Assembly: GCA_020091685.1 (NCBI GenBank)
Contig: CM034613.1
Coordinates: 24,381,738 to 24,445,737, forward strand
DNA length: 64,000 nt
Direction: 5' to 3'
Source: Lutjanus erythropterus
Taxonomy: Eukaryota; Chordata; Actinopteri; Lutjaniformes; Lutjanidae
Within the stretch, counting starts at the first letter, position 1. Each line of letters begins with the position of its first letter. A model generated the notes under the pieces. The model was not told the DNA's origin and searched no databases. It saw only the letters and a list, made by a program, of their open reading frames with translations. A program made the translations under genes and the position numbers. Of this stretch, positions 1,604 to 52,377 are shown piece after piece.

Positions 1604-1805
1604 TCCTGATGCCATCTACTGTTTTTTTATTTTTTGGGGGAAAACGGTGAAGCTGGAGAAATGCAATGTTCACGTTTCACACCACTGCAGAGGGTTTATT
1701 TGACAAGTCAGTGGGTATAATAAGCCATGCTGGTTCATAGTAACTTCGAAAAATGAAAGAAGTGCTGTCAGGTACCTTTTTTATCAGGTAAATGATATAA
1801 ATTAT

Positions 1806-8528: not shown

Positions 8529-8808
8529 TCAATCAGAAACGGAGCCTTGAGAACTCTGAGTTGAACTTCCTGATGTTTTCTGTTTAAGTTTCTGATAATG
8601 TTTCTGGAAAAAAACAGAGAAACAAAACAATATGAGGCAAAGTGTGTGTTTTTGTGTTTAAATTTTGTGTATGTGTTTGTGGTTACCTGCAGGTTGTTGT
8701 AGTGTCTCTGGCTGCTGCAGTGGACGTCCTTGGCGGTGCTCTCGTTCAGATAGAAAACAGAACAGAGGTCACAGAAATACCCTGATTTAGGAACCACGAA
8801 CTCCTGAC
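8529..8808 (-). CDS. Copy A exons 31-32: C-terminal U1/matrin-type zinc finger and tail
   Basis: Exon 8687-8808 (122 bp) encodes [14 protein letters not shown], then H-x5-H in VHCSSQRH: the Cys2-His2 spacing of U1/matrin-type fingers. Exon 8529-8603 encodes KHYQKLKQK, a Ser/Gln tail and SVSD before TGA. The exon pair, including the 83-bp intron, is almost identical to copy C (51855-52134) but clearly different from B, which suggests recent exchange between A and C. Confidence 0.85.
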
Positions 8809-14800: not shown

Positions 14801-17800
14801 TGTTTTCTGCTGGGATCCAACACTTTGACATTATCTTTGTTATCAATTTCTTGATCTTTACCTACTGTATCTTTAACTGAAAACGACTCATCAAATTTGT
14901 CTGCTTTTGGAATTGCATGTTCCTCTGATAGCTCCCTTGCTGTGGAACTGTCATTTTGGACCAGGTGACCGTCCTCTTGACTTGTAGCTGCTTGGTGTTC
15001 GGTGACACTGTCTAGCACTTGAAAAGAACCATCCATTTCACTGTCCTCCTCTGGGCATGTTTTGCCTTCATTGTCAACACTGTCCATCTGTCCAACATCC
15101 ATCTGTTCATCTGTTTCATCAAGAATTTGGTAGTTTTCCCCACTGACGTCCTCCTGCTCTGCGTGCTTGTCAGCATCACCTTCTTTCCCTTCCTCTTTGT
15201 TTTTCTTCTGGACTTCTAGCAACTTCCTGTCATTAAAATCACTCTCCTGACTCTGGCCTCGGCTCGACTCTACCCCATGTCCCTGTGAAGGAGGATGCAT
15301 CACTGATGAGGTTTTTATTTTTTTCTCAGACTCAGCAGTTTTTGCAGCAATGCCCTCTGCTGACACTTTGTGGTCAGACTTTGCCACTGCACCCTCTCTG
15401 GTTTTCCCTTCTTCTCTGAGGTGCTCTATTGATGCCTCAACAGTTGCTGCTGGTGTTGTCTTTTCCTTTTCACGGACCGCAGAGGACGAGCAAGTACTAC
15501 GACCTGAGGATTCGATATTTGATGCTTTGGACTGAGATTTTGTCTTGTTCTGTAGTGACTTCTGACCAGGAGAGGAAGGGGTTTCACAAGACAGCAGAGA
15601 AGAAGAGGAGGAGGGCTTACTGACACTGGCAGAGGATGAAGGTTTGGTAGGGGATTTGGCGGGCTGAGATGAGTCTGTGGATTTTCTTGGTGACGCAGAG
15701 CTTGAGTTAGATGAGCTTGAGCCTTTAGTTGACTTGGATGAAGAGGATGAGGAAGAGACTGAGCTCTTAGAATCTTTTGAGGACCTTGCTGAGGTCTGTT
15801 TGCCACCAGATGACACACCTGAGGTTTTGCTCTCTCTTCTCCCTCTAGAGGATGAGGAGGAGCTATTAGGCTCAGGTTTTGTGTCTTCCACATCATCACC
15901 AATTTCATCAACAGTAACAAAGTCATCCATGTTGAACTTTGGCTCATCAAAATGGGAGGAGTCTGAAGAGACGATGTCATCTGTAACATCATCCTGACCC
16001 TGGATGGAGAACAAAGACGGAATCAGTGACTGAAACAATGAGTCAGTTAGCTTATTAATCATGATAAAATAGGAAAAACAGTTATTGTTGACCCATTCAT
16101 TCATTGTACAAACTTGTTTAATTAACAAGAACTGGTGAAAAGGACTAGGGAGAAATGTGAGAGGAACTTATCAGGATTGGGGGTCTCATTCCCTGTATAG
16201 CTGAATGTTATTGAGAATAAAAAACACAATAATTTACCTTGCTTTGAGGTGTGTCTTCAGCTGTTACAGCTATCGAGTCCTAAAGAAAACACATTTAAAA
16301 ACAAAACAGTCACTTTTTCTGGATTAGTGATGTGAAATAAATGGCAAGACATTTATTAGGCATGGAGGTGAACAATAAAACTACCCTCTTTTCAAATGCC
16401 ATTTGGAATTTTGGAATTTATTAGTGCGCTCTTCAAGAGCATTTTGTATAGGTTCACTGCAAAAAGATTTTGCTTATTTTGTTTATTCAGTTATTTATAT
16501 TAAATTATTGGTTAACTCTGGGATGTTTTGTTTTTTTAATTTGTTATTAAGACTTTTTTATTGCTTAATGTAAATGCTGAGTAACATCTGAAGCCAGGCC
16601 TCACCTCCTTCTCCTTGCTCTGGGAGCCGCTCTCTCGGGCGAGTCTCCGCTGGAGAACTGCTGCCTTCAGGGCCTTGAACATGTCTGGGTTAATCTTCAG
16701 AAGTTCTGTAAAGTTTTGTTCAGGCCTCAGGACTGTGTCTGAGGGGGCGGGGCTGGACGCAGCAGGGACTGTGTTTCCACTGCCGATTGCAGAGGTAGAG
16801 GTCACATCAGGAATAGAGACTGAAGTTGTTACTGACTCCACTTCCCTCTTTACTTTCTGTGCATCTTCATTTGCTTCGCCACCAGTGGAGTCCACAGCGA
16901 TCTCAGTTCCTGGTTTCTCATCCTCCTCCATCATTGCTACATCACTTGTGGTGGTAATACTTGGTACTGCTGTGGTGGACCCACTGGCATGCAGAGCTGG
17001 TTGTGAGGCGATATCCGAAGCTTCAGGAGGAGGAGGCTGGGTCTGACATTTCGCAGCTGGAGGCTGGGCTCCTACTTCGACGGTCTCTGGTCCAAAGTTT
17101 ATTGTGACCTCACTTGAGTCATGTAGTCGCTGTTTTAGGCTTTTCACACTAAAAACAGAGAGAGATTGACAACAGGCTCACAAGATGGTTGAATGCATCA
17201 CTTGTTACAGAAATCATCTGGTGTTAAGTGTTCAGTCATCTCTTGGGTTATGACAAATATGTCAGTGAGTTGAGTGTTTGTCAACTGCGTCAACTGTTCA
17301 CTATATATTTGTTTTGTTGTTTTTTTTTCTGTTCAAATTGTGCTCTTGACATCACTGTAAATGAAGGCACTCCCTCAAAGCTTCCTTCAGATTAAATAGA
17401 GGTTGAATCATCACAAAGACTAGTGTCACTCTGTCACAACTAAAACATGTTTTGCCTCTCTCTTGACCGGACAACAATCAAATACAAAGTGATATACTTA
17501 CGTCTCAAAATGCTTCACTACACCCCTGGAGAGAGAAAAAAAGAAGCAGATGGTCAGTTTAGATGTGAGGAATCACAGATGTAAATAATTATCAAGCTAA
17601 TTTAAACCCATTTCATTTCCAAAACTTAAGGACACATGCATACCAAGCTGCGTGCTGTTTAAAACACTCCTGTGATGAAGTTTTGTATTTCTCCACCGCC
17701 TGCACTACACCGCTGGAGTCGGCCATCTCAATGCAGATCTGTGGTTGAATGAAAGTCATGGACAAAGAGAGTGAAAAGACAGAGGAGCTTCCATCAGGTG

Positions 17801-20800
17801 CAGCTCTAAAAGAAACTACAGTCAATTCAGAAGACTTTTGAAGATGTTGCAGATACACTGACATGGCGGTTCTCTCAACACTTCGATGTAAACAGTGCAG
17901 GTGTTTGATTTTTCGTACCCTGTTGGCAAGTGGCAGGAAGCCAATAAAGGGTGCGATGGATGCCACCACTTCAATGACCATCCTGATTATGTCCACGGAC
18001 GTCTCACAAGTCTCCACACACAGCAACCGCTCCTCCAGAGAGTTTGGCTCTGGAACTCCCTGAAGAGAAAGAAATAACTGGCATTGAGAACAAGAAATCC
18101 AAAGGTAGCTGCTTTTACTTGACAGAAGATTTATATAAGTGATTCATGACTTACAGCGTTGCTCCACTTCATCAGAGTTCTGTACATCATCTCCTGCAGA
18201 AAGATTACAAAAGATTACATGGACTGTCATGGAAGTCGCCAAAACACATTCGTATATTTTGTATTTCACCTCAAAATGATGATCAGAATGATTAAATATA
18301 AGACAAATTCATCTACTTCTGAAGGTTGACACACAGTCCATACCTCACTGGATTCAGGATTCACGTGCTGAAAGACGAAGTGGACGCCGAGCTTACACTC
18401 TCCGACATTAACCGGATTTTTGAGGTGATCCCGGACAAATCTGCAGCACGTAGTCCAATCGTCGAAATGCACAAAGGCCTGAAGGTGAAGTGAGGAAAGA
18501 CAGGAAAGGAAAAATAACTAAATTCTAACAGTTCCATATAACAAACAAAACAATTACAATACGTGTGTCAGTTTCCTTACCCTCTTCTGCAGTGTTAACA
18601 CCGTCACGTTGTAGTACAGGGAGTGAAGGTTCTGTTTGGGGAAATACCTCCAGACGAGCTTGGCCACGTCCTCGTGTTTGTAGCATGGCTTTGTGAAGCC
18701 AGTCAACATGACTGTGGGGAACCTGGAACAATGACCACTGGCCTTCTAGAAAACACATCAGTCAAAGACCAAAGTTTAATTTATGTGCTGATTCAACTTT
18801 ACGGTCCATTAGACACAAAAGATCATACATCAGAATACACTGTGAGAACAACTGTGAAGTAGAAGTGGGACATTTTCAGAAAGATGTACACAACTGGTCG
18901 AAAGTTCACACCCCCATTTTCAACAATTACATCCAAATTTGCAGATATAACAGCCAAAGACAGTCATGGCATTCTTTACAGACTGGAAAGTAAATTAGGT
19001 ATTAAAATTTATGACAGGTAGTGCTAATCTTAGTGTTATACAGGAAAATGAGATTACCTCAATGTCGTCCTCTCCTCTGACTGTCAGGTAATCTTTAAGT
19101 TAAAAAGAAACACAGTCACTTTACTGAGTAAGTTTACACGGCCAATTTGTCAGTATCATACGTGTCACTATGTAAGACAAACTGTCTGTCTTACCTGGAA
19201 TGATGAACCACGGAGATTCGGTCGGGAACAAGAAGGGACTTGTTCTCATTGTGACCCAAAATGGTGAAACGCTACCCCATGGAACGCCAGATTTTACTGC
19301 CGGGACAGCTTCCCAAGTAACACAATATCTGCTGTGAGCTTTCTCAGGAGGTTTTGGTGCTGCACAAAAAAACACATTGAACAAAGTGTCATTTTGAATA
19401 CACAACCCCAATTCCAAAATAATTGAGGCACTGTGTAAAACAGTAAAGTTTTTTATTTCCTAAAACAGAGACTTGCATATTGACGTACCGGTGTTGGATG
19501 GTGGTACCGGCCTGTGGACTTCGTATCCAGGGGATTGTTTCGAGAGACTGTACCAAACTCCGAACCGATCAGCATCACAAACGGATGGAAATTCTATAAA
19601 TACCTGGGACACACAAGCACATACACACACAGATGTGATGGGTAAAGGCTCAGTCTCCTTTCTGGAAAGAGACACTGATGTTGAATTTTTCAAATGTATT
19701 TTTTTTGTGCTTTGAGCACCACAACCCAAGTGCCATCTGGTTCCATTATACTGAAGGGAGATCAGAAATGTCTATGGCTAATATCTCCAAATTATGTGAG
19801 TCACACCAACACAATCTACAAGGATAAATAGCACTACAGGTAAGACAAAAGACAAGTGAACTGATCTGTTTATCAAAGATAAAGATTGAACGTGAGAAGA
19901 TAAATGGGTACCATCTGAGTCAGCCAAAAATAAACTGAGAAAGTTTAAATCCATCCAAGTTTTGATATCTGTTATGCAGGCTGCACTGAATCATTACTTT
20001 AGGTTTTTAAAAGCAGATAGATTTGCAAATCATCAGTAAAACAATGAAATTGAACATTATGTGTCTTGAAAGTGGAGCAGCATATACAATGAAAAGAGGG
20101 CGGGGCCCACAGTGGAGCCTTGAGGAGCCTTGTTTGTGTTCATACCTTGTTGAGTAGAGGAAAGAAGTTCTTGACAGGACTGATTGTTTTCAAAGCCTCT
20201 CTGAGGTCCCTGGCCTCACTTGGTGAAATGTTCTTGATGAGGATTATTATCTCTTCTTGATCTTCTACAGGCTGCAACAAGAACACAAAGTAAACATCCA
20301 AACCAAAAAGTTAACAAGAGAGTTAAGAACCAAGGAGACATCCACAACTGCACTGCAATAAATTAATTTTGAACACTTTGGTTTCGTGTTCGCCTTCACT
20401 GTTTTACATCATAAATGATCGTGTCCAGCTTTTATCAGGTTAAATATATTTCAGTGAGACAAAACTCTTTTTCACTTTTACTACACTAATATGACCACAC
20501 ACAAGGTTATAATTACAACTTCTTTTACAGACTTGGTCGATTGCACACTTTCACCAACAAAATACAAAGTAGTTTAGGAATGAGAAGGAAGTGTGTGTGT
20601 GTGTGTGTTACTTACATATTTCATCATCCTCATCAGTGATTTATAAAAGAAAAGCTGAAACAGAAACAGTATACAGCATTAAAATACAAAGATACCTTTA
20701 CACAATACACCACACTCAACTAATGTCAACACACTCCAGAGTCACTACTGCTACTGCTTTGTTTTTTCTGTGAATTATTAAAATCTGGTGAAAATCTGAT

Positions 20801-23800
20801 TTTAAAAGGGTCAAGATCGGATTGCAAAAATAAACCTTGCAAAGATTACACCTTGCATCTGCAATGTTTAGTCTTGTTTCAAAAACAATCATAAAAAATC
20901 ATGAATAAGTCATGAATATACTGACCACCTATAAAAATCCTTCAGTAACAACAGTGTAAGTATATGCTTACCGGTGACATTGAAATGCACCCGTTTACTA
21001 CACGGACAGTGAGTTTAGATCCTTTGAAAAAGATGCCACTCCTGAAAGAGACTCGCATTATATCGTGCATATCAGATGCTGTTGGCATCAGGACGAATGC
21101 CTGAGAAGAAAATGAGAAACAGACAGAAAAAAATAAATCATTTGTCTCAGAATCGACGCCTCTCGTCAAAGACTGAAAAGCAAAACATTAATAATAAAAT
21201 TAATGAACCAGAACAGTGGAGAGTTATAACCTGGTGCCTACCATGCACGCCTGAGGAACAACATGGAGGGTGTCATCTGCTTGTTGAAACCCAAACAGCA
21301 TGAGCAGTTTGGCAAAGTCTTCCTCTGTGTAGCAGTGATCGGAAAACTTGGGCAGTCCGGTTATGAGCAACACCTTCCTACCTTGCATTAAAATCTGGAA
21401 AAATTAAGGGAACAAAGAGAGAGCGCGATAATAATGGGTTAAGTTAGTTAATGATAAACGATAAGTGCAATTATCAACAGCGTTTCCACCCCTTGTAAAC
21501 TCTTTTTTTAATTATATATTATCACTAACACATGTAAAACTGTTAATCATGAAAATATTGGTTACAACAGGCTTTCTGCAGTGTGGGTTTGGGTTGGCTT
21601 TCAAGTTAAAGTTAAAAATTTTTGTGACCATCTCCTAGTTTATATCTTTAGTGTGGTACTGTAACATGCAGATTCTGTAGGACTTCATAGAAGTGATTTG
21701 ACCTACTTTAGGTGATGAGCAGGCTTTCAAACTGAGGCAGTCTGTGAAAGAGATAATGAGAACATAATGATAATGAGAAAAAGAGAGATGGTAAAATTAC
21801 AATGACATGTTGACATGTTTGTGGCAGATAAACTCAGCCTCTTTCTTACATTTCTTAGTGATTTGCTCTTGAAGGTGCATTTCTATCTTCTCCCCAAAAG
21901 TCAGATGGGTAACTGCAGCTGGAGAGGACGTGGACGCTGCCTGCAGCTGCTCGCCCGCTGCTGCATCTGTTGGCTCAGTTGTGACAGATGCATCCTTTGC
22001 TGGTTCTGTATTGGTTTTTGTCTTCACAGGATCTTCAACAGCAGCTTCAGCTGAGCTTCCTGCAGTCTGCGGTTGTGTTTGTGAAGCCTCAGTCTTGGTC
22101 TCCGGTCCTTGTGCAGTGGACTCTGGTTCTGGTTCTGACAGGGTGCTCTGCTGGACGTGTGTTAAAGTTTCCACAGAAGTTTCTGATGGCCGAGCCTCAA
22201 CTGAGATGGTTGGTGATTGTCTGTCACTGGGTTTGTCTGCTGATTTTTCTGGTCCAGCCTCTTCTGTTGTTTTCACTGTGCCTTCAGCACAACTTTCAGT
22301 TTCCATGGGCTCCTCCACTTCATCTCCTGTCTTCCCAACCTCCATTGGTTCAGCATCATTGGCCTTGTCTTCCTGCTTAGGTTCAAAAACTTTCACATTT
22401 GCTGTTTCAACAACCTCAGCTGTGTCTTTTGGCACCAACACAGCTTCTTGAACCTTTGCTTCAGATTCTTTAGGCTTGTAAGTTTCTACACCGGGCTGAT
22501 TTTCTGATGCAGTAGATTTTGAAGGCACACTCACAGCATTTGCAGCTGTTTCTCCAACCTTTTCTTCAGCCACAGTTCCTACTGCAGCCAACTTGTCTGC
22601 GGGAGTTTCAGGTTTCTGTGTATTTGAGGCCATTGCCGCTTTGGAAGCCAAAACCTTTGGTTCAGTGAGGATCTCTTTGCCTTTTGTTGGTTCAGTAACA
22701 GTCCTGTCTGCTGATTTATCAACCTTGACTGCTCCTTTCAGCACCACCGATTCTTTTACACTGCTTTCACATTTTTCAGGTATAGGTTTTTGTTTGGAGT
22801 TACCAGCATCAGGCTGATTTTCAGGAGCCACAGACTTGGATCCTGAGGATGTTTTTTTCTCTGCCGCAACCTTTTTCACGGCGCCCTTTGCAGGCAACTT
22901 TCTTGTTTTTACAGTTTTAGCTATCTGCTTGGTTGTGGCTTTTTTCGCTTTGGAAACCAAGACTTTTGCTTTAGTGACAGTCTTTAGACCTTTAATTAAG
23001 CCTTTAGCTTGATTCTCCTGATTGGTAAGTTTGCCTGTTGTAGCTCCAGAGGGTAAGGGCCCTTTAAGCGGAGGAGTAGGGAGAACACCTTTACTGGTGG
23101 TGGACTTAGTGCTCTGAGGTGTGGAGTCACTGGATGTGGCAGGTTTTCTAGGAACAAAAGAGAAATACTGGGTCAAAAAGGAGAAAATGGGAGATGAAAA
23201 GACAGTGGCATGGTTTGAATGTTTTTTATATGGTCTTCATTATAAAATAGTACTGTCCTTCACAGGTTGAATTCCTGGGATTAATTTTAATTCCATGAGT
23301 GAGCAAGTGTTTGATTTCACATTAACGGTATAAATATCTTACTTCTGGGAAGGCTTCATTTGTTCCACAGACACAGTCCCCTGTAAAAAAGAAAAAAATA
23401 TTTTTTTCAGATTCATCGGCTAATCAGCAGTGTGACCGCACAACAGAACAAATGTTCATATTTACCAGGGACAGACAAAGAAAGACAGAAAGTGCAATAC
23501 CTTTTTTCTTATGACGTTGACAACACTCTTCATTTTATTAGCATCTTCCCCCTCAGAACACCTGACTACCTACATGTGCACATACAAACATATGAAAGCA
23601 CGTATCTTTGTAAATAAAAACAGAATGCAATGACTGTCTTTTCGGGCAGGTTGTATGTAGCAATAAAGGATGATTTTTAGTTTAGTCCTTGATCAAAGTG
23701 TCATGTGGATAAGATTTAAACAAAAAGAATGAGGTAGAGCAACAGGAAGGAAAGGATGATAAACCAAACCAACCTTAGTCTTTGTGGGACTAATTGTCTG

Positions 23801-26800
23801 GCTCTTCTGCATGTTGGGCTTTGCTTTAGAGGCCTTTGTGGTCAACTTTTTCTTCTTTGCTGTAGAGGAGGAAGAGGAGGCCTCCATCTTCACTAGCTCA
23901 GCCACTAAGGCAGGTGTAAGAGTTTTAACCACAGCCTCCAAGTCTGACTGTTCTGACAGCAACTGGACAGCTAGAGGGACAACAATGAAAAGAGCGATAA
24001 AATTACAGTGTTTGGTAGTCTCATACAGTGTCTCTATTTTAAGATGAAGAAAAGAATCATCTTGAAATATCTGAAAATTCTCAAACCTGGTGTTTCCAGT
24101 AGTTTCTTAACCAAAAGTCTCTCAGCACTGCTTGACTTCTTTCGTTGAGGGGATGACCCCTCTGCGGATGATCGACTCTCACGACTCCTCCTGGGTGGCG
24201 ATCGTCTGTCATCACTCCTCCTAGGCGGCAATCGCCTCTCATCACTCCTCCTGGGCGACGAGCGTCTCTCGTCACTCCTCCTCGGTGGCGATCGTCTCTC
24301 GTCACTCCTCCTCGGTGGCGATCGTCTCTCGTCACTCCTCCTCGGTGGCGATCGTCTCTCGTCACTTCTCCTTGGCGGCGATCGTCTCTCGTCACTCCTC
24401 CTCGGCGGCGACCGCCTCTCATCACTCCTCCTTGGTGGCAATCGTCTAGCAGGGCTCCTCCTTGGAGACGATCGCCTATTGTCATTCTTCCTTGGCGAGG
24501 AGCGTTTCTCATCTCTCCTCCTTGGCGACGATCGTCTCTCAGGACTCCTTGAACGTGACCGATTATGGGAGGAGACTGGGCGGTCATACCGTGGGGAGCG
24601 AGATCGAGACCTGATGAAAGTCCATATAAAAATTCTTTTACAACTCAAATACTTTAATAATAATTTCAATAATGGCATTCAAACATTTCACAACAGATGT
24701 AACTTTCTCAAGGGGTGAGTGACAGATCTAAAGAAGTATCTCTTCTGTTAACTCACGTTCTTGGTCATATCAGAATTTTTGTGGGACCGACCTGCGAGTG
24801 TATCTGGAACTATGTGGTGATCGTGATCTGCTACTGCGTTTCTCTCTTCTACCCTCTGAGCCACGGTGTCGACGGGGACTGAGCGAGCGGGAGCGGGAGC
24901 GGGAACGGGAACGAGAGTGGGAGCGAGAGCGGGAGCGACTTCCATGCCTCGTTTTCTGGTTGCGATGCTGGAAAGTCTGTGCAGAGGTTGAGGATGAGGT
25001 CTTGGCATCTTTACCTGCAGCTCTGAACAGAGCAATGGATGAGGAAAGCAGAAATTAATCATAGGAAAGGATTTTTTTTTTTTAAAATCAGCAAGCTGCC
25101 GGTTCAAAACTGATGTGGTGGCTACCTGTCTGAAACTAAAGCCATGCGGCCCCAATTGTCTGAGAGCAAGATAGTTGGTCAGCCGCCTTGCAGTTTGAGC
25201 AGTTGCGCCCCCCAATTTCCTCCCTGACTGCTGTCAACAGATCCATTATCTTTTGACTGCTATGAAATAAAACTGAGCTTAACTGCACATCAAAAAGACT
25301 TTATTGTCTGCACCTTCCAGTCGTCTCAAGCCCCATTAATATGCTTCTTTCTCACCTTTTGTTCAGAATGTAATTGGGCAAAGTGTTGCTGTCTTCACTG
25401 TCTCATTTAGTCAACACTGAGGACCTGCCATCTTATTTGAATACTGGAGAATAAAAGTAGGAGATTCTGGTCGCGCACAAAGGAAGATTAAAGTGTCTAG
25501 TCTGAATTAACATAACGTGCAAGTTTGATAACATCACACAGTGCCTGCCCGGCTGAATAAACTTACCTTGGCCCAAGTGCACCATCCCACTCTGGGTATC
25601 TGTGGAATAAAACAATTAAAAGATCAAAGAGGTCATACTGTGACAACAAAAGCCTGGAAATGTCATGGTTTGATTTTTGTTTTAACAATGCCGCCAAAAT
25701 ACTGATAACTTCTGGTCATTATAATTAAAATGTGAAATTTTTCAACATTTCTTCACTAATTACAACTTTTCTCTGCCCAGTGTTTCCACAACAGTATCTC
25801 TAACTCAAATATCTCTTTAGGGAAAAGTTAGAAGAAAGACTGACTGTTTTCGCAGTTGTGTGCAGTTCTCAAGGTGAAGGCTGGTGTTCTGGTGGGCGAT
25901 CCATTCCTAGTAGTCAGAACCACAAACACACAGCATTTAAATAAATATCATAATAATATCATTTAGCATTTAAGTAATATCATCAAAACTATTTTCACTT
26001 TTATTATCTTAACCATCATTTTTGTGAATGTCTGACAACATGGATGCTGTTTATTTTATTCAACATTACAGATGCAAAAGTTGCTTAAATCTCTAAAGTT
26101 TGTGTCTACAGAAGCAAAACATTTCTCCAGTTTCTTTAAATATTTCAGTCATCCAAAAAAACAGGAATAACACTGAGCCCATGTGAGGAGGTGATCAGCC
26201 ATTAGTAAATTATTGAATTTAAATTTAACTGCAAAAACATATTTTATATTGACAAAATTAAGGATTTTTTTTTTCAGAACTTTGCCAACTCTTACTTCTA
26301 GACTTACAGCTGGCCTTATAGTCAACTTCAGTTCAAGGGCAATTCAAGTTGAAAGTCGTGAAATAAAAAGAAAATACAGAAGTGCCAGTCAAAAACAATC
26401 AAAACAAAAACTCCTTCTCAAATTCTTGAAAGAACGATGTGCGGGTTCTTCAGTGTTGTGGCACCATAAAGTCTCCTGAGGTTTGGTGAAGGTCATCTCA
26501 GCAGAAGGCACGATGAGGAAGCAGGAGGAGCAGGAGGACTTTTTTTTAAAAAATTAGCCAAAATCTGAAATTTGATGTCCCAAAACGAGGAAATAATCAA
26601 ATACACATGAGCCACAGGCGATCAGGTCACAAAAAAGAAAACAAAATAAGCTTTGCTGATTCACTGCTTTATGAAGAATGACAGTTGCTGGTGGCTTCAG
26701 GTTCACAGTATTTAACGTGACTGGAATACAAATACACAAAATAAGGGCTCCATAATAATATTACTTTGAAGTGATACAATCTGTTAGATATTAGCCCTAA

Positions 26801-29760: not shown

Positions 29761-30048
29761 GTTTGCAAACTTCAGAATGTTCAAGGGACTGATGATCGCA
29801 GCAGTCAGGTAGGGAGGTGCTGTAGGCGTGAAGGAAGCGGTGTGTTGGAGTTGGATGTAAAGGTTGAACCTTGTCTGCCAACAGTCAGAGAGTTGTTCAT
29901 CTGTGTCAGTTCTACCTGGTTCTTCAGATGAGCCAAATGCAAGAACAAAGCTATCTGAAGCGAGTTCCCTGGAAGCCCCCCAAATAGAGGCCTGTTTAGG
30001 TTTCCTGGACCAGGCGAAGGGGCAGCACGCTCTGATAGCAATACAATG
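29761..30048 (-). other. 5' leader part of the first coding exon, copy A, with a frame-broken peptide
   Basis: A CTTTTCAG acceptor at 30048 is conserved in B (48098). The leader encodes a family-like LHLAHLKNQVELTQMNNSLT then TFTSNSNTP in one frame, while PYLTAAIISPLNILKFAN lies in the frame of MSHPLYNPY, one base out. This suggests a former N-terminal extension broken by a one-base change; translation would then start at 29760. Confidence 0.5.
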
Positions 30049-32754: not shown

Positions 32755-32865
32755 CTGCCGTTATTTGCGCATATCTCGGTGCTTTGTAGTGCTCATCTTC
32801 AGGCTGTTAGCAGGAAGGTAAACTCAGACTGCACACAGATGTGGACTTCCGGTTTCGGTGTCCAG
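32755..32865 (-). promoter_or_regulatory. Copy A first (non-coding) exon and TATA-less promoter
   Basis: A GTATGC donor at the low end follows AATAACGGCAG. Upstream lies ACCGGAAGT (32845-32853 on the - strand), an ETS-type site, next to CTTTTACTCTGAAGG. The same block, with donor GTATGT, occurs at 50058-50180 in B, so the promoter was duplicated. No TATA box is seen. The transcription start is a guess. Confidence 0.5.
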
Positions 32866-32926
32866 CCTTCAGAGTAAAAGCACGGCTGTTTGAAGAAAAT
32901 CCAAGCGCAGGATTGCAACCTGGAAC

Positions 32927-33520
32927 CAGTGGTGAAAACAGTACTGAACATCTGTACTCAGTACAGGTACTGTTACATTACTAATTCTTACTCAATTACA
33001 AGTAAAAGTACTGGTGTTAGAAAAATAAGTGCAAAGTATTCCTCTATAACAAAAAAACTCAAGAGTATTAGTTACTTTTTAACCGTTTGTTTAATTCATT
33101 ATCAATAGCAGCACTCAATCCAATTCCAACTTGTGCATTTCCACCACACATATGTCATATGAGGTGCTATTACTGCCATTTATAGACTATCTATTAATTA
33201 GCAGTTATTACATTTTAAATCGGTTCAGTTCTTAAAGGTGATTAATCGATTAGTGATTAATATTCCTACTCCTAACTCCTGTGCTGTCCTGGTCTTTATT
33301 GGTCCATTTGTGATGAGTTTGGTGGTTTGGATATTAATTCAAATTGTACTTAGTACTTAATTATGATTTTAAAAGTAACTAAGTAGATTATGTGACACAA
33401 TGATACTTGTATGAGTAAAAGTAAAGACTTGAAAATCTACTCCAAAAAGTACAAGTGCCCCCCAAAACTTCTTAATTACAGTGATTTCAGTATTTGTACT
33501 TAGTTACTTCCACCCCTTCC
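32927..33520. mobile_element. hAT-like non-autonomous element with AGTAACT/AGTACTT ends
   Basis: The left end is CAGTGGTGAAAACAGTACT; the right end reads AAGGGGTGGAAGTAACTAAG in reverse. The inside is full of AAGTAAAAGTACT-type words characteristic of a widespread fish repeat. Flanks CCTGGAAC and CCTGAATT are only a partial target duplication. It lies within about 60 bp of the copy A promoter. Confidence 0.5.
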
Positions 33521-33646
33521 TGAATTCTATCTTTCATACTCGATAGGAATTAATCAGGTTCCTGATCAGCAGCTATTCATTTATCTATCGATCTTCAATG
33601 CAAAAAAAGATGTGCAACACAAGAACAAATTTTAAAATAATTAAAA

Positions 33647-33652
33647 TTTATT
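33647..33652 (-). terminator. Poly(A) signal of copy B
   Basis: AATAAA on the - strand in AATAAATTTTAATTATTTTAA, followed by TTGTTCTTGTGTTG. It matches the ends of copies D and C. The 3' UTR is about 0.87 kb. Confidence 0.65.
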
Positions 33653-33989
33653 CATCTCACCGTTAATGAACAATGATCAGAAATCAGATCAGACACTCAA
33701 ATTGTTATCCGTTTTATAATCAGAATAAAGAAAACTGTACAACAGAAATTATATTACATTTTGGACTCACAGCATTTGGTGAGTTCAGAACAGGAAACTG
33801 TCAAGATACCAACTAAACTGTATATGTAAATGTGTTATTAAGTTAAAATTATGATTACCTCTTATTAACACACATATTTCTACATAAAAACATACATTTG
33901 TCATGACTTACAAGAGATCTACAGTTAAATTAGAGTAAAAATGACATTTTACACCTGCGTGTGCAGAAACTGGGAGCAGGTGGCAGATG

Positions 33990-34033
33990 TTCAGATACAT
34001 TTTCAAAAGGAAAGAAAAACAAAAAAACATCCC
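33990..34033 (-). promoter_or_regulatory. 3' UTR block of copy B identical to copy A
   Basis: Partner of 7516-7559: 44 identical bases in otherwise diverged 3' UTRs. Confidence 0.5.
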
Positions 34034-34521
34034 TTCCCCCCCGACTTCTTTGACAGATCAGTGAATTATTGTTTACATCTTCAAAACTAGAAGAAGAAAA
34101 CGTCGAGTTACAAAATGTTTGCTAGCGCGCATCAAGCAGTGAAGAAAATACCAACGTTATGTGCAAAATTAAATTCTAGAATTCATTTATATAATTTTAG
34201 CTCTCAGAGTAAAAGTTCATCCTTTAGGAGGTGCTACATGTACGTCACTACTGCGCACAACAGAAAATAAGAACTGTTTTTGAAGCGATTTCCATCAGCC
34301 CTGTTGTTTCCTGTTCTGCACACAGTCTTTCTTCCATCCTTGTTTCTATGGGGTGACTAAAAGAAGTATCTCAAAAATATTGATGTAAATATTTATTGAT
34401 GAGTAAAAGAGCTCATGTAGCAAGTTCTAAACTCTAGCATGTAACTGTGACCAAGTTCGTTACAAGAGTTGTTTCCCGTTTTCTCAGAGAAGAGATGTAG
34501 TCTCAGTAGATGATGTCGGGA

Positions 34522-34802
34522 TCAATCAGCAACGGAGCCTTGAGAACTTTGTGTTGAACTTATCGATGGTTTCTGTTCAAGCTTCTGATAATGTTTCTGG
34601 AAAAAGAACAATTGGGAAAAACACAAACAATGTGAGGCAGAGGGTGTGTTTTTGCGTTTAAATTTGGTGTATATGTTTGTGGTTACCTGCAGGTTGTCGT
34701 AGTGTCTCTGGCTGCTGCAGTGGACGTCCATGGCGGTGCTCTCGTTCCGATAGAAAACAGAGCAGAGGTTACAGAAATACCCTGGAACCACAAAGTCCCG
34801 AC
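34522..34802 (-). CDS. Copy B exons 19-20: C-terminal finger with a two-residue deletion
   Basis: Exon 34687-34802 encodes DFVVPGYFCNLC; the Lys-Ser present in A, C and D (VVPKSGYF) is missing through a clean 6-bp deletion just before the first zinc Cys. The H-x5-H part (VHCSSQRH) is intact. The last exon ends SQGSVAD-TGA. Substitutions here resemble copy D more than A or C. Confidence 0.82.
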
Positions 34803-37800
34803 CTGAAAAGGCAGATGGTGAAAATGAAACGGGATGAACAAGATGAGGTCAAAACCTTTTTATGGCTGGACACTGTGTGTGTGTCAATATGTGAAAATGT
34901 CACAGGGGTGGTGTGTGGTGGTGACCAAAATGTTGATTCTAGACATTAAATGCTCATCTGCAATTTTCTGTAGTAGCCAGTCACATGATGTGCTTAAACT
35001 ATGTTTGAGTCAAAGAGGATATTTGATTTGAAAGAGAACATAATGATTGTAATTATTCTGTTATCTGTTAACCTGCTCTTTTTATCTGTGGAAGTCTTGT
35101 TCTTTTTTAGACTCGCTCTGTATTGAGTGCTTTGTATGAGTGTAATTAATGGTGCTTCCTGGCACATGAAGAGCTGCCTCTTCCTCTCTACTCCAAAACT
35201 TGGCCGGCTGAAGCAAATTTTAAAACATAACAGGAATGCGTTAGTGTGTGTTTCTCACCGAGGGGGTTGTTGGGTTTGAATGGCGGCAGTCTGAAGTCAG
35301 CAGGGACACAAGGAGACTGAGAACGAGATCTCTTTGCTTCGGGTCCGACGGGCTCCGTCCTCAGTTTACTCACAGCTGAAGAAGAGAAGGAAACAATAAT
35401 CCATAAACAGTCAACACTGCAATGCAAGTTCAACAAACAATTAGTCGCTGATTGAAGTCTCATTTTCTGTGGTAAGACACTACATTCTGAGAGATTTAGG
35501 TACATGTATCTGACAAAAAAAGCAATTAGAAGACATCAACTTAGATTATTTTTTAACACTGACTAAACAATTTATCAAAAGTGGAAATAATCCTTAAGTG
35601 ATTTTAATCCACTTTGGAGAAAATGTTCAGAAAGATTCACTTTCACTGATTCAGAACAGCAGCTCAGAGTGGATGTGGCAGACGCTAAAACTGAAGAATA
35701 AAATGTCTCTGTTAGTGTGGAAATGTCCTCAGTCTGTCCTTCTTTCAGCTCTCTGTACCTTTAATGTCCGTCCTGCTCCGTCCTTCCTTCTCCTCCTCTC
35801 CTCCCTCCACACATCCCTCCAGTGTCTGGTTCTCAGGGTTCTCAGGGTTCTCCGGCTGCAGCTCCTGTCCAGCAGAGGCGGCATCGACGTTGGCTCGGCT
35901 CGCTGCTTCCACCTCTGTCTTCTGGACCTCCGGCTGGACGTCACTTGACAACGTAGACGGATCTTTGTCCAATGAGGAGGAGGCATCAAGTGAGGAGGGA
36001 GGCAGTACATCAGCTGGTTCTTTTTCTTCTTCTTCTTCTCTCTCATCTTTTGTGCTCGCTTTTTTCCCTCTGGTAGATTTTTTCACTGTGTTAACAGACA
36101 ATGAATTAGTTGAGTGAAAAAAATCAAAGGAATATTACAAATTCTTTGTGAAAGCTTTTGTAAATATGTGATATACGTCTATTTATACAGCTCATTTCTA
36201 TTTATTTGATCTTACTCGTTTTATTGTTTTTTGTACTCATGTTTCTTGGCCATTTTTTCATTTTATCTGTCTTGTCTGGTTTTATTTTCTTTTATAACAT
36301 TGTTAATGAAAGTACTTTATAAAGTTTATATTATTACTAGTATTATTATACTTTTAATTCATTACGTTTCAGGTTTTAGAGCTCCGTCATTGGAAAGCAG
36401 TGAAGCCAAAGTTTTTCAGAATCTACAGATTAAATTTGACATGATTGTAGAAAAGATACAGATGTGTGTGTGCGTGTTACCAGGGGTCTGTCTGGCTCTC
36501 TTCTTGGCTCGACCACTTGATCTGGTTGTTACTGCTTCCTTTTCCTCCTCCTCTTCCACCTCTCCTACCTCGTCTACCGTCACAAGGTTTATACTTTCCT
36601 CTAAAACAGAACACATAAATCAAAAAAGTTACGTTCCACCTTGAAAAATTAATAATACGACCAAGCGACCTCTTTTTTGTGTGTTTGTGTATTTCCATCA
36701 GCATTTAGCTCAGGTGCACATTCATTTCATGAAACTCGATTCTTGTGGGTATAATGGAATTGTACCTGTGCAAGTATACAGTATTATATACTGACAGAAT
36801 AACACACACCTGTGTCATCATTGTGTTTGCGTTTTGCAGGTCGTGATGTTTTCTCAGTTTGCTCTTCATCCGGCTTCTCTTCCTCATCATTACCAGCTTC
36901 ATCTAAAATCACCAAAGTCTAAAAACAGACAGAAGAAATCTTAAACATCAGTTTTTCATTCATTGAATGTGTTTAACAGCACTTCAACATAATTTTTCTA
37001 TGAAAATAATTAAAACTTGCAGGTTGTTAAATCTGAGTCTTTACCTCTGGGTTTAAGGAGTTCGCTGGTTCGTCCTCCTGGAGAAGTGGGCGGGTCTCCA
37101 GCGTGCTTTCCTCTCCCACCTCATCCAGAGTCAGCAGCTCCTTGGTGTCTGGTGTCTCATTCGACTTCTTCGTCCCTTCCCTGTCACCTCCTTCTCTGCT
37201 GCTGCTGCTCCGGCTCCTTCGCTCCCTCGATTCTCGCTCCTTGGCGAACTGCTTCTCCTTTGTGGTGGCCTGTTTATTCCTCAGTCCTTCCTCCTCAGCC
37301 GTGTCGTCGGGCACGACGTTCACTTCGTTCAGGTTCAGAGTGCTCGTTGTGTCATTTTTCTTGGGCGATTTTTGTTTCTCTTCCTCTTCCGGTGTTGCAG
37401 TATCACTCTGGGACTCAGCTGTAGGTTTGTTCTCTTTCTTAACGTCTGTTTCGGATGTTCTCTCCTTATTCCCGATTGAAGACACTTCAGCAGCTGTGGC
37501 ACCACATGTCAGTGTATCTTCTTTTTCAGCTGATGCCTCTTCTTTTTTAAGAGCTTCATCTTTTCTTTTACTGTCACTCTTCTTTGTTGGTGTGCTCTCT
37601 TTTTGAGGGGCTTTCTCTTTATTTGTTGTTTTTTCCCTGTTTTGTTCTTGTGACTCTTTGGCAGGAGTTTGTCTACTTCTTGTTGGAGTATCCTCTTTGT
37701 TTCTTTTCTCATTTGTAGTATCTTTCTTACTTGTTCTTTCGCTTTTTCCTCTGGTAGAACTTGTGATTGCTGGTCCATCGTCAGCAGTCTTGTTAGCCTT

Positions 37801-40800
37801 CTCAGGCTTTTCAGTTGCTTCCGTGGCATTCAGTGTATCCTCTTTCTTTCCTCTTGCACTCTTTCTTCTACTAGACCTTTCTGTTGTGGCTGCATCTTGA
37901 ACCGTTTGGTCTTCAGCAGAATCTGTCTGTGTCTTGTCTGTGGCTTCTTTGATCTCTTTGTCTTTTTCAGAGACTCCTGAAGTGGTGCCCGTCTTCGTTT
38001 GTGTCTCATGTTTTATAACTGTCCTGTCCTGTTTCTTTGGTGATTTCTCCTTCTCTTTACTTTTAGATGCTGTGGTAGTGGTGCCATTCTTTTTTGATTG
38101 CCTGTCAACATCATCTTGTTTCCCTCCCTCTTCGTTGTTCTTCTGGTCTTTAATATTAAAATCACCTTCTAGACTCTGGGCCTGAGAGCCCTTACTGACA
38201 CTGGTAGAGGATGAAGGTTTAGTCAGAGATTTGGTGGGTTCCGGTGAGTCCTTCGACTTTTTTGTTGACACAGAGCTTGAGCCTTTAGTTGACTTGGTTG
38301 AGGAGGATGAAGAAGAGGCTGAGCTCTTAGAATCTTTCGAAGACTTTGTTGAGGTCTGTTTTCCATCTGACGACACACCTGAGCTTTTGCTCTCTCTTTT
38401 GGTTCTGGAGGAGGATGACGAGGAGCTGTCAGGCTCAGGTTTTGTGTCTTCCACATCATCACCAATTTCGTCAACAGTGACAAAGTCATCCAAGTTGAAA
38501 CTTTGCTCATCGAAATGGGAGGTGTCTGAAGAAACCGTGTCATTTGTAACATCATCCTGACCCTGGATTGACAACAAAGTAAGAATTAATCACTAAAACA
38601 ATAAAACAGTAAAACAGACATAAAACGGCAATAAGAGAAATGACTGACCAGTTCATGTATTACATACAATTGTTAAATTAACTTGGGAGAATTGTCATAG
38701 GCAAATTTGAAGAAAATCGTTAGCTTTAGGGTAGAATTAGGGTTTGAAGTCTCATTACTTGTCTTGATGAAAGGTTTAAGACAAAAAAGGAACAAAACAC
38801 ACAGCTGTTTACCTTTCTTTTTGGTGTATCTTTAGCTGCTGCAGTCTCAGAGCTTGTGTTGCTTTTCCTGGGGCTCTGAAGAAAACGCACATTTGAAAAA
38901 GTCAGTTCCATTGTCCTCTTTTCACAATTTCATAGAAATTTCTGACTGTACTGTATGCATATCAACCTTTCAAAATGCCAGAAGAATTAGCTGACATTTT
39001 GAGCACATTTTTACAATTCTGTTTACTCTATTTTTACACAAAGAAATCTAAGTTGCTTCAAGTTCCTAAACTTCTACATTATGTTTTATAAGTAATTTTG
39101 GAACAGCTGAACTACTGCAATCCACCATGGCTTCGTTCGATCAAGAAATACAATTTCACTACCAATGCCTTCAGTACTTCATATAAATGATTTGAGGAAA
39201 CTTACTTTTGCTGAAGTCTTGTTTTTCCTATTGAGGGACACTGTGAAAGAAACAATAGAAAACATAAAACAAGAGACAGATGTTGAAATTCTGATCACAT
39301 TTGTTACAGAAAACAAATGGATTTCTTTTTTTTTTATAAATCTGTATTCGGGTGCTTTTTCTACCCAGTAGTTACAGAGGTACCTTCAGTCGAAGCTGAC
39401 GTCGACGCTGCCTGTGAGACGGATGCGACTAACTCAGTTGAGTCAGCGGAGACTTTGCTGGCAGCTTTGGTGGAACCCTTGGCTGACGCTGCAGTCACTG
39501 GAACTTCAAAAGAAAAAAAATTAATGCCTTGCACTTTATAACACTTCCTGCTGGGCGGGGCAACACATCTAACCTGAAATAACATTTTTGTTACTACAGA
39601 GAGAGTAACATACTGAAAACATGTACTGTTTGGACACTGGTACGGTTACTGTTTCAAATATGAAAGGTACCCAACCCTAACTGACAATATGGCTGAATGA
39701 TTTTGAACAAAATAGAAATTTAAAATATGAAATGCAATGCAATTATTTTGACTGATATTGCAATATTAGAAGTAATAATTTTAAATCTTTAGTCTTATTC
39801 TGACTGGAACACGTTAAAATAACTATGGTGTGATATTTTTTTTGCAGGAATCTGGATCAAATGAAGATGATTTTTTTAACTCTATAGAATCTGATGTGAT
39901 GCCTCATGACATTCAATCATCTAAACATTTTTTGACACGCATTTTGACTTCAACAAATATTGCATCTCCTGTGATTTAAAAATTGCAGAAAGCCATACTG
40001 CGATTTCGATAAAATTTTGATTGATTTTGTGCAGCCCTAGTTAACGAAAATATAAAATACTGTCAGCCTTATCCTTAAAACATTTCCTACCAACACCACA
40101 TTGAATGCATGCATTAAAAAGGTCTCCAACATACCTTTTTGCACAGTTTTTCCACTTGGCTGCTTTGCCTCCACAGCAGCTTCAGTTCCTGCAGCCTGCT
40201 GTTGCATTTGTGAAGCCTCTGTCTTGTCCTCTGGTGCTTGTCCAGTGGACTTGGATCCTGAAGACTTTGAACTGTTTTGTTTTACCGCTGCCTTTTTCAC
40301 AGCTCCCTTCACGGGTGAATTTCCTCTCTTCAACGTTTTAGCTATCTGCTTGGTTGAGATGTTTTTCGCTTTAGAAACCAACACTTTCGCTTTAGATACA
40401 GTCGTCACATCTTTAACTGAGCCTTTAGCTGCAACTTTCTGATTGGTAAGTTTGCCTGTTGCAGCTTTTTTGTCTCCAGAGGACTTGTTAGCTGTAGAAG
40501 GAGGAACTTTTTCAGTGGTAGAGGTGGATGAGGATTTAGCGGTTTGAGGTGTGGAGACACTGGATGTGGCAGGTTTTCTGTGAACAAAAGAGATTTACAT
40601 GAGTCGAGCAGGAGAATACGTACAAATGGAAAGTCAAGGCCAGATAGTACCATCCTTCAAAGGTTGAATTCCTGGGATGAATTTATTCAGTGTGTGAGTA
40701 ATTGTTTGTTTTTAAATGGATACAATAAAGAAATTTTCCACACGGGATGGACACGATATCATGTGCAGAAGACCTGTACAGTTTACAGACATAAAATCTC

Positions 40801-43800
40801 CCTTTGTCTGAGTATTTTCAGACTACAATAAATTGCACAGGTGTTTCAAATCATGTCCATCCTGTGTGCACTCACACACACACACACACACACCCACACA
40901 CACACACACTGATTTCTGTCATGAGGTAAATTCCCAAAAGTGAAAACAGCAAGTACAGTAAACTATGAAAATATGAATTGTATGTTGAAACCTTTCTACT
41001 GAGGACATTAAACAGCAACTGAATATTTGTAGTAATACGTTTGTGTGAATATATTGGGGAAAAAAACAAAAACAAAATAACCCTTCTACCATCCTTTGCT
41101 GGTAATAAGATTTATGTGTGAAACACATCTTACTTCTGAGAAGGCTTCTTTTGCTCCTTAGAAACAGTCTCCTGTAAACAAAGACAGTTGTTTTCAGATT
41201 CAGCATTCTGTTTTTATTTGTTTTACACAGTGCAGCAAATTTTTTAGAAATGGGGTTGGTATACTTGCAGAGGACGGAGAAAGAGAGACAGAAAACGAAG
41301 TACCTTTTCTCTGACAACAGTCACTGTCATTCCTTTCACAGTGACACTCTTTGCACTCGTCAGTTTCTTTGCATCTTCCTCTTTCTCGAAACGCACCACT
41401 GCCTACATGTGCACACACAAACATACAAAAGCACAGTAATACCAGTGCACCATCCTCTCAGTCAACACAGACACACGTCTCAAGGCCTGGATACTAACTT
41501 TTGGGCTTAATGATTTATGAGTTTGATTATTTTGTTAATGTTTAAGAGATACTTTGAAAAAGCAACAAGGTAAAACCAGTCTAACAGACTATACAGTACT
41601 TTCATATTATGAAAGGCAAAGCATTAGCAAATATAGATCTTGGTAGAAAAAAAAACACATTACAGTCTTCACCGTCTCTATACGTACCTCCAGTCTGGAA
41701 CGAAACAGGACAACTGACTTGGTTTTTCCGAATTGCTCCACAGCAGCAACCACATCACTGTGAGAGTGATAACTATAAATCCCGTGTAGTTTCACTGTGG
41801 TCAGAGGTGAAGATTCATCAGACTGAACAAAGAGAGGGAGAACAAACACAAACTTTAGACCAAATCTAACAACCGAAACTGGTTGTCTTTTAAGTATGGT
41901 TAGAGAGAGACAACTGCATCTAGTTAAAACGTCCAATTAGACTTTAATGGTCTTGATTTTCTGCTTTGTACATAGCAAAGAAACAGGATTTTCAGTTTAG
42001 TTCCTGATGAAAGTGTTATCTGGATACAGTGTAAATGAAAACTTTGAGGTGGAAACAAGAAAAGGAGGAGAAAGAGACTGTTACCAAATTTTCTTGGTAC
42101 ATCAACACAGAAACGCTTTCTAACCTTAGTCTTTGATGAAGACCCTGCCTCGCTCTTTTCCTGGCCGGGCTTTGCTTTGGAGGGCTTTGTTGCCGACTCC
42201 TTCTTCTTTGTGGCAGAGGATGAGGAAGAGGCAGTAGAAGACGATCTCTTTACTCCGGCAGAGGGAGGAGACGAGGAGGGTTTTGATGATGATGAAGAGG
42301 ACGACCTCATCTTCGCTAGCTCGGCCAGTAAGGCTGGAGCCAGAGTTTTAACCACGGCCTCCAGGCCTGACTGTTTTGACCGAGATTGGACAGCTAGAGG
42401 GACGAAGATGAAAAGAGTGTCAGACAACACTGCAGCATTTTGTTGGTTGTTAAGTCTTAAACAGAATCAAGCAATTTTAGTTTTCTTGCCACTTTCTATG
42501 GCCTATAAGTAATAAATTGCATCTAAGCCACCAGAAAGCGCAATAAAATTAAACACTGCTTTTTCCTGGAAACTGAAAGATGAAATCAACAGTGAAAATT
42601 ATCTTTAGTTGCAGCTCTAAACTTAATAACTTGAAAATAAATATATACAGTATAAAACTAAAGAAAAATATTTTGCATTTGTTACATGCTTGTGTATAAT
42701 GTTACATAATAGGCACAGATATAATCAGTGAACAAGAATAAGTCTTAAAACTTTACTTATGTCAGGGTCTTAAAACATTTGCCATTTCTCTAACCTGATG
42801 TTTCCAGCAGTATCTTAGCCAGTCTCTCTGCACCGCTCGACTTCTTTTGTTGAGGGGATGACCTTTCTGTGGACGATCGCCTCTCGTGGCTCCTCCTTGG
42901 TGGTGATCCTCTCTCCTCACTCCTCCCTGACCTGTCATCGCTTTTCTTTGGCGGCGATCGTCTCTCATGGCTCTTCCTTGGTGAAGATCGTTTTTCGTCA
43001 GTCCTTTTCGGAGGAGTTCGTCTCTCGTCATTCCTCCTTGGTGAGGACCGTTTCTCATCTCTCCTCCTTGGCGACGACCGTCTCTCAGGACTCCTCGACC
43101 GTGACCAGTTTGAGGAGTTTGAATGGTCACGACGTGGAGAGCGAGAATGAGACCTGGACCTAATGAAAGTCATTCAGTCATTTCATAACTCAATTAATCT
43201 CAGTGACAATTTAAAGAATGGCAATCAAATAATCTAGATAGAATAGAATAGTCTAGATTTCTCAAGGCGTGACTGACAAATCCAAAGAGGTCAAAATCAA
43301 TGTTGATGTTCGACACAATCATATTTGGGTCACAATCTGTTGATAAGAAGCATCTCTTCTGTTAGCTCACATTTGTGCTCGTATCAGAATTTACATGTAC
43401 CAAACCTGTGAGTGTATCTGGAACTGTGTGGCGATCGTGATCGGCTACTGCATTTCTCCTTTCTACCCTCCGAGCCATGGCGCCGATGGGGGCTAGATGA
43501 GTGGGAACGGGAGCGGCCTCCATGACTTGTTTTCTGACCATGATGCTGGAAAGTCTGTGCCGATGTTGGGGGCAAGGGCTTCACATCTTTATCGGCAGCC
43601 CTGAGGAAAGCGATGGATGAGAAGATCATGTGATAAATGACAGACAATTTAAAAAAGTAAAAAAAAAACAAAAAAAAAACAGGTTACTATTGATTTTTTT
43701 TCTCAGGCAACTCATGTGGTTGTTAGGTATCTAATATAAATCCAGACACTGTACAGATTTTAGCCCTAAATATGTCACCACGGCCAATTTTAGAATCGAA

Positions 43801-51854: not shown

Positions 51855-52377
51855 TCAATCAGAAACAGAGCCTTGAGAACTCTGAGTTGAACTTCCTGAT
51901 GTTTTCTGTTTAAGTTTCTGATAATGTTTCTGGAAAAAAACAGAGAAACAAAACAATATGAGGCAAAGTGTGTGTTTTTGTGTTTAAATTTTGTGTATGT
52001 GTTTGTGGTTACCTGCAGGTTGTCGTGGTGTCTCTGGCTGCTGCAGTGGACGTCCTTGGCGGTGCTCTCGTTCAGGTAGAAAACAGAGCAGAGGTCACAG
52101 AAATACCCTGATTTAGGAACCACGAACTCCAGACCTGAAGAGGGAGACGGTGAAAGTGAAACGGGAGGGAAAAGTGTGACTAAACATTTGTATCTCATGT
52201 CGTTTTCAAATAAAATGGGATCATGTTGTGTGGTGTGTATGTGTGTCTGTGTCCCACCGAGGGGGTTGTTGGGTTTGAATGGCGGCAGTTTGAAGGTTGA
52301 GGCAGCGGCACGAGGAGACTGAGAACGAGATCTCTTTGCTTCGGGTCCAGCAGGCTCCCTCCTCAATTTACTCACAG
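51855..52377 (-). CDS. Copy C exons 25-27: linker and C-terminal finger
   Basis: Exon 52258-52377 ([20 protein letters not shown]..., GTGGGA donor), exon 52013-52134 ([16 protein letters not shown] and VHCSSQRH) and exon 51855-51929 ending SVSD-TGA. The last two exons with their intron are nearly identical to copy A. Confidence 0.83.

What the first reader, a model, noticed from the sequence alone, without database searches (positions are those of the whole stretch)
16238..41822. Reciprocal loss of RRMs between copies A and B
A lacks the first half of RRM1 but retains four later RRM-like units. B retains RRM1 in full but lacks every exon between its micro-exon (39206) and the exon at 38813, the place where A has 15 exons. 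Both remain in frame. This is the pattern expected for partitioning of RNA-binding functions after duplication.
Basis: partly seen in the sequence, partly recalled or inferred. Interest (0 to 1): 0.85.

Follow-up and report, generated by a model that had tools for sequence, protein, structure and literature searches.

The report
Fish ZNF638 copies differ in RNA-binding modules
A fish chromosome carries a row of at least three copies of a gene resembling the gene-silencing factor ZNF638, and two neighbouring copies have lost different RNA-binding parts; related fish show similar losses in many combinations, so this looks like repeated reshuffling more than one tidy split.

Summary
Two tandem minus-strand genes (A, 29760-8529, 4199 aa; B, 47833-34522, 1978 aa) read in frame with GT-AG introns. 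A has no usable upstream RRM; B has it but lacks the four-RRM block that A keeps. A profile scan of both strands finds the upstream RRM only in B and block units only in A and in a third copy, C (63694-51855, cut by the window edge), which the finding does not mention. The genes are ZNF638 (NP220)-like. Of 151 compared rows 97 have both modules, so both states are best read as losses. B's loss is shared with Symphorus nematophorus; the probable Symphorus counterpart of A keeps an intact upstream RRM, so A's loss looks younger. A's intron still holds both flanks of the deleted exon. Other fish copies lack either module, or both, and some have the block two or three times. Copies exchange sequence by gene conversion. 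Divided RNA-binding work is possible but not shown; a clean two-way split is contradicted by C. Human ZNF638 RRM1 corresponds to the first block RRM, not the upstream one.

The parts
8529..29760 (-). Copy A, ZNF638-like gene, ATG to stop, 32 coding exons, 4199 aa, no usable upstream RRM, four-RRM block present
   Evidence: internal junctions AG/GT, one stop; relatives
23501..23569 (-). Remnant of the second-half exon of the upstream RRM in A (69 nt, in frame, decayed)
   Evidence: not found by the RRM profile at E 0.05
23570..23773 (-). A intron that joins the two flanks of the deleted first-half exon
   Evidence: 82 of 113 columns to B's 5' intron; 29 of 32 bases to the end of B's 3' intron
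21707..21741 (-). A 35-nt micro-exon before the block (same place, length and phase as B 39240-39206)
20616..21394 (-). A block unit R2 (exons 21394-21242, 21100-20972, 20654-20616); counterpart of human ZNF638 RRM1
19489..20271 (-). A block unit R3 (exons 20271-20146, 19603-19489)
19058..19359 (-). A linker exons between R3 and R4 (19359-19195, 19092-19058)
18155..18745 (-). A block unit R4, homologous to R2 (exons 18745-18581, 18478-18344, 18193-18155)
17502..18059 (-). A block unit R5, homologous to R3 (exons 18059-17919, 17738-17644, 17525-17502)
16605..17148 (-). A post-block exon, absent from B
34522..47833 (-). Copy B, ZNF638-like gene, ATG to stop, 20 coding exons, 1978 aa, upstream RRM only
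41304..41822 (-). Upstream RRM of B (exons 41822-41688 and 41402-41304)
   Evidence: (PF00076 21.0 bits, cut-off 20.7)
38876..39205 (-). B intron where the block exons are missing, between micro-exon 39240-39206 and exon 38875-38813
51855..63694 (-). Copy C, ZNF638-like gene, 5' part off the window; 27 coding exons seen, 1209 aa; block present, R2-R3 doubled (62892-60735 and 60217-58040)
9088..9443 (-). Stretch of A 95-100% identical to B across an exon-intron border, then falling to 37%: gene conversion tract
1259..1634 (+). 3'-end fragment D of a fourth copy, opposite strand; 83.7-86.5% identical to the ends of B, A and C

Best explanation
A tandem array of ZNF638 (NP220)-like genes, in a percomorph fish whose nearest relative among those compared is the snapper Symphorus, in which RRM modules are deleted and multiplied copy by copy. 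The ancestor had the upstream RRM and the R2-R3-linker-R4-R5 block (from comparison). An ancestor shared with Symphorus lost the 14 block exons of B between two phase-0 borders (same junction in both). Later, in the window's lineage, a deletion between two introns removed the first-half exon of A's upstream RRM, and the second half decayed (deletion shown; timing rests on P0198 being A's counterpart). C kept the block and doubled part of it. A and B keep the regions outside the RRMs, so each probably still reaches chromatin and ZNF638's partners, while the RRM set decides which RNA it binds (inferred). Redundancy between copies makes each single loss tolerable (inferred); gene conversion keeps the 3' ends alike.
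For: Models in frame; module absence by profile scan of both strands; intron flanks of the deleted exon; both modules in 97 of 151 compared rows; same block-less junction in Symphorus P0001, winB and P0001 sisters at 100 SH-aLRT; P0198 with intact upstream RRM (99.9 bits) and block, 60% identical to A against 49% to C over the same interval; other losses with other junctions, judged by eye; block modelled as four RRM-topology units (best model pLDDT 87.2, pTM 0.86; the five models range 76.6-87.2); dN/dS between copies 0.24-0.92 in 16 pairwise comparisons; conversion tracts.
Against: P0198 as A's orthologue is not resolved by the block tree, and its gene model lacks the N-terminal half. Relatives are mostly automatic gene models, several named isoform X2, so single absences may be splice choices or truncated models. 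Within-species clustering could also come from gene conversion of an older A/B pair. No transcript data; the window's own genome could not be searched. The state before percomorphs is untested.
Confidence: 0.62

Rival explanations
1. True division of labour (duplication, degeneration, complementation): A and B together carry the ancestral RNA-binding repertoire, each keeping one module under selection.
Against: C also carries the block, so A is not its only holder; 12 of the 13 other sets with differing copies are not reciprocal, and seven rows lack both modules.
Confidence: 0.25
2. Neutral decay of redundant copies: A or B is losing function, and the RRM losses are harmless.
For: RRM modules absent in many rows with several junctions; A's first zinc finger has a shortened Cys-His spacing and no Pfam zinc-finger hit at E 0.1.
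Against: Long open frames in A (4199 aa) and B (1978 aa); dN/dS below 1 in all 16 comparisons, though conversion and relaxed constraint blur this; B-type copy kept since the split from Symphorus.
Confidence: 0.2
3. Adaptive module turnover in a genome-defence gene: copies change RRM sets in conflict with retroelements or viruses, because mammalian ZNF638 recruits HUSH to foreign DNA.
For: Mammalian role (PMC8621569 and PMC11910234, passages seen); gain and loss of modules among percomorph copies; high dN/dS of R4 (0.92) and of the post-block exon (0.71) between A and C.
Against: No test of positive selection was run; relaxed constraint gives the same ratios; no functional data in fish; in the passages seen silencing needed the DNA-binding domain and zinc finger, and RRMs were not mentioned.
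Confidence: 0.2
4. B-type is one old percomorph paralogue, and gene conversion has made its N-terminus look young in each lineage.
For: Block-less copies occur in many lineages and form one group of 31 rows (support 82) within Ovalentaria; conversion is active in the array.
Against: Junctions differ by eye: window B and Symphorus lack the post-block exon, while Pempheris, Paralichthys, Solea, Xyrichtys, Pampus and 13 of the 15 Ovalentaria copies printed keep it, and Dicentrarchus and Seriola differ again.
Confidence: 0.15
5. Assembly or gene-model artefact.
For: Tandem repeats are hard to assemble; no reads were available.
Against: The deletion flanks lie inside an intron of A; Symphorus, a different species and record, has the same block-less B.
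Confidence: 0.04

Closest known systems
Human ZNF638 (NP220), including its first RRM, PDB 6SXW (residues 676-749)
   Different: ZNF638 is described with two RRMs between two zinc fingers (PMC6279932, one passage seen). Here A has four, B one and C at least six, in tandem genes. B's only RRM is not the match of human RRM1 (13.9 bits).
Symphorus nematophorus proteins P0001 (ABDE67_020491) and P0198 (ABDE67_020489)
   Different: P0198 keeps an intact upstream RRM that A has lost
Matrin-3 and RBM20
   Same: Called the nearest relatives of ZNF638 (PMC6279932, passage seen); the block profile matches the RBM20 RRM (E 0.0023), and the upstream-RRM profile matches a matrin-3 RRM (E 3.6e-7)
   Different: The passage gives two RRMs for matrin-3 and ZNF638 and the abstract start gives one for RBM20; no four-RRM block
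Subfunctionalisation by complementary degeneration after duplication (recalled model)
   Same: Complementary loss between A and B
   Different: At least three copies, probably unequal ages of loss, and copies with no module in other fish

Membership tests
ZNF638 / NP220 | Nearest sequenced relatives are named ZNF638 | tested here: met
   about 45 of the 120 listed carry that name (my count; mostly automatic names)
ZNF638 / NP220 | N-terminal C2H2 zinc finger | tested here: met
   B: PF12171 23.6 bits, cut-off 22.6 (19.6 bits in a longer piece). A: no Pfam zinc-finger hit, spacing one residue shorter, so inconclusive for A; C's N-terminus is off the window
ZNF638 / NP220 | C-terminal matrin/U1-type zinc finger | tested here: inconclusive
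   zf-U1 16.2, 18.5 and 20.0 bits in B, A and C, all under the cut-off of 22; A's C-terminus matches U1-C in the PDB at E 4.3e-5
ZNF638 / NP220 | Arginine/serine-rich region before the RRMs | tested here: met
   Read in A and B; 30-base repeats
ZNF638 / NP220 | An RRM homologous to human ZNF638 RRM1 | tested here: met
   R2, present in A and C: 34.1 bits to 6SXW. Not met in B, whose upstream-RRM profile gives 13.9 bits
ZNF638 / NP220 | Two RRMs between two zinc fingers (PMC6279932) | tested here: not met
   A four, B one, C at least six; so the copies are filed as ZNF638-like variants, not as plain members
ZNF638 / NP220 | Binds cytidine-rich DNA and recruits HUSH/SETDB1 | not testable with these tools
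   Reported for mammals (PMC8621569, passages seen)
ZNF638 / NP220 | Orthology with the mammalian gene by synteny or tree | not tested
   No sequence outside percomorphs was in hand except parts of two PDB chains
Subfunctionalised duplicate pair | Ancestor had both modules | tested here: met
   97 of 151 rows have both; no outgroup beyond percomorphs
Subfunctionalised duplicate pair | Each module survives in one copy only | tested here: not met
   C also holds the block
Subfunctionalised duplicate pair | Both copies expressed with divided function | not testable with these tools
   No RNA or binding data held

The most novel reading that the evidence does not exclude
Percomorph fish have turned a HUSH-recruiting silencing factor into a tandem, gene-converting family whose copies are assembled from interchangeable RRM modules (none, one, four, six or more). 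Reciprocal loss between neighbours would be one outcome of a repeated process that tunes which foreign or retroelement RNAs each copy recognises, driven by conflict with those elements.
Probability: 0.18. Interest if true: 0.75.

Novelty: new variant of a known kind. Interest (0 to 1): 0.52.

Why it matters
If right, fish give many natural module deletions in relatives of a protein that recruits chromatin silencing to foreign DNA in mammals. Comparing copies with and without each RRM, in one genome, would show what the RRMs do, which the passages seen here do not address. It also warns that one-to-one orthology with human ZNF638, and the numbering RRM1, do not carry over: the human RRM1 counterpart is the first unit of the block.

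Tried and rejected
Missing exons hidden in the window: rejected by a profile scan of 2682 ORF pieces of both strands. tRNA and Rfam scans: nothing. Pfam on A's block: no family at E 1, and RRM_1 in only 2 of 22 block members, so RRM identity of the block rests on the fold model and on PDB profile matches; for the upstream RRM, 15 of 20 members match RRM_1. Similarity of the upstream RRM to R2-R5 by profile comparison: not significant (probabilities 11.0, 31.5, 1.5 and 0.2%). A single-sequence PDB search with A's block found nothing better than E 0.76. A tree of the block to prove that P0198 is A's orthologue: unresolved (99 rows, many Ovalentaria and pipefish rows left out by genus name before the tree). 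Foldseek scores to the whole block model are low (TM 0.13-0.20 by query length, top 50), as expected for a chain of domains; the VIA comparison effectively tests only model residues 2-110, that is R2, so R3-R5 rest on the strand and helix order of the model. Outgroups beyond percomorphs: as far as I recognise the names, none was among the 120 listed hits of each of three protein searches (194, 226 and 174 hits passed), so the state before percomorphs is untested.

Literature: ten full-text searches, three of them with capped lists (20 of 54, 20 of 163 and 15 of 17 papers shown). By titles and abstract starts none listed is about tandem ZNF638 copies or RRM turnover in fish; this is no proof of absence from print. 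Papers seen: PMC8865469, PMC8621569, PMC6279932, PMC11910234 and PMC12994711, each as passages found by term only. PMC6349045 is not held.
Full report
Anatomy. The window holds a head-to-tail array on the minus strand, in the order C (5'), B, A (3'). By exon-by-exon reading, B has 20 coding exons and encodes 1978 aa, A has 32 and encodes 4199 aa, and C, whose 5' part lies beyond base 64000, shows 27 coding exons and 1209 aa. All internal junctions are AG/GT and each model has one stop, at its end. A self-comparison shows the three copies and a 3'-end fragment, D, at 1259-1634 on the other strand. The finding speaks only of A and B.

The two losses. B's upstream RRM lies on two exons, 41822-41688 and 41402-41304; the Pfam RRM_1 score is 21.0 bits against a cut-off of 20.7, 15 of 20 family members match RRM_1, and the family profile matches many RRMs of known structure. 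In A the first of these exons is gone and the second is shortened from 99 to 69 nt. A's intron 23773-23570 still matches the outer parts of both B introns around the exon, 82 of 113 columns on one side and 29 of 32 bases on the other: a deletion in the DNA, not a splicing choice. Conversely, A has 14 exons (21394-16605) between its 35-nt micro-exon and the exon at 16279. B has a micro-exon of the same place, length and phase (39240-39206), then 330 bp of intron, then the exon at 38875; the ends of that intron resemble the ends of A's stretch only weakly. A scan of 2682 ORF pieces from both strands with profiles of all six elements found the upstream RRM only in B and block units only in A and C.

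Comparison with other fish. Three protein searches listed 223 different proteins; as far as I recognise the names, all are from percomorph fish. I tabulated the 207 of the first two searches plus the three window proteins. Among the 151 rows (winA and winB included) that have both the N-terminal region and the C-terminal finger, 97 have both modules, 47 lack the block, 14 lack the upstream RRM and 7 of these lack both; on an N-terminal tree (179 rows) the fewest changes are 13 and 10. Same-contig sets were recognised by equal contig length; of 33 such sets other than the window, copies differ in module content in 13, and one, Paralichthys olivaceus P0021 and P0035, repeats the exact reciprocal pattern. 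Some sets are isoforms or near-identical models, some of the rows without modules are short models, and gene conversion can disturb the tree, so these numbers are rough. In Leuresthes, Melanotaenia and Kryptolebias one copy has no block and another has three block sets.

Age and independence. Window B and Symphorus P0001 are sisters in the N-terminal tree (100 SH-aLRT, 81% identity over 549 columns) and share the same junction from micro-exon to the exon after the block, without the post-block exon. I printed this junction for a chosen set of 39 proteins and judged it by eye: block-less copies of Pempheris, Paralichthys, Solea, Xyrichtys, Pampus and 13 of 15 Ovalentaria copies keep the post-block exon; Dicentrarchus and Seriola have other junctions; Centropristis P0102 and Larimichthys P0084 gave no readable motif, and Scophthalmus P0099 was uninformative. 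Symphorus P0198 aligns with A over most of its length (57%), and over the interval where C can be compared it is 60% identical to A and 49% to C; it keeps an intact upstream RRM (99.9 bits) and the block. If P0198 is A's orthologue, A lost the upstream RRM after the split from Symphorus, and B's block was already gone. The block tree does not settle this orthology. Trachinotus P0054 (an isoform X2 model) also lacks the first half and keeps a second-half remnant, as A does.

Constraint and conversion. Pairwise dN/dS by a simple counting method is 0.24-0.49 between A and B in six segments and 0.29-0.92 in ten block, linker and post-block comparisons between A and C or between C's two R2-R3 sets. 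That argues against long-dead genes but not against relaxed constraint; no test of positive selection was made. At the 3' end, A and B are 95-100% identical from 9443 to 9088, across an exon-intron border, then 37%; A and C share an 83-bp intron at 100%, while two nearby A-B introns are 47% and 57% identical. I read this as gene conversion.

How it most likely works. ZNF638 in mammals binds cytidine-rich DNA and brings HUSH, SETDB1 and deacetylases to unintegrated retroviral DNA; [quoted passage not shown] A and B keep the regions outside the RRMs, though A's first zinc finger may be weakened and the C-terminal fingers score below Pfam's cut-off. I infer that the copies still act on chromatin and that RRM content changes RNA choice. 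Shown: structure of the genes, the deletions, the presence of module differences in other fish. Modelled: the RRM folds of the block. Inferred: expression, RNA choice, silencing role, order of events in A.

Verdict.

Noticed in passing
51855-63694: Third copy C, cut by the window edge, with the R2-R3 pair doubled (62892-60735 and 60217-58040), at least six RRM units.
   Followed up: yes
1259-1634: 3'-end fragment of a fourth copy on the + strand; the self-comparison shows no match to the well conserved exon 19 upstream of it, so it looks truncated.
   Followed up: partly
10663-15999: A's acidic exon is 5337 nt against 1518 in B and has an internal duplication (12082-13202 with 13954-15086, 77%; 13283-13949 with 15092-15746, 78%).
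   Followed up: no
24170-24549 and 42948-43096: Thirty-base repeats in the RS exon: 12.7 copies in A, 5.0 in B.
   Followed up: no
27793-27850, with exon 25906-25845: A's first zinc finger has 11 residues between the second Cys and the first His against 12 in B, and no Pfam zinc-finger hit at E 0.1; it may be weakened.
   Followed up: partly
8529-9443, 34522-36085, 51855-52915: Patchy near-identity between copies at the 3' end, including an 83-bp intron identical in A and C: gene conversion.
   Followed up: yes
P0008, P0017, P0024 (Seriola): ZNF638-like copies with both end regions but neither RRM module.
   Followed up: partly
5143-5244 and 6114-6014: Inverted repeat of about 100 bases at 92% identity, perhaps a mobile element piece.
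   Followed up: no
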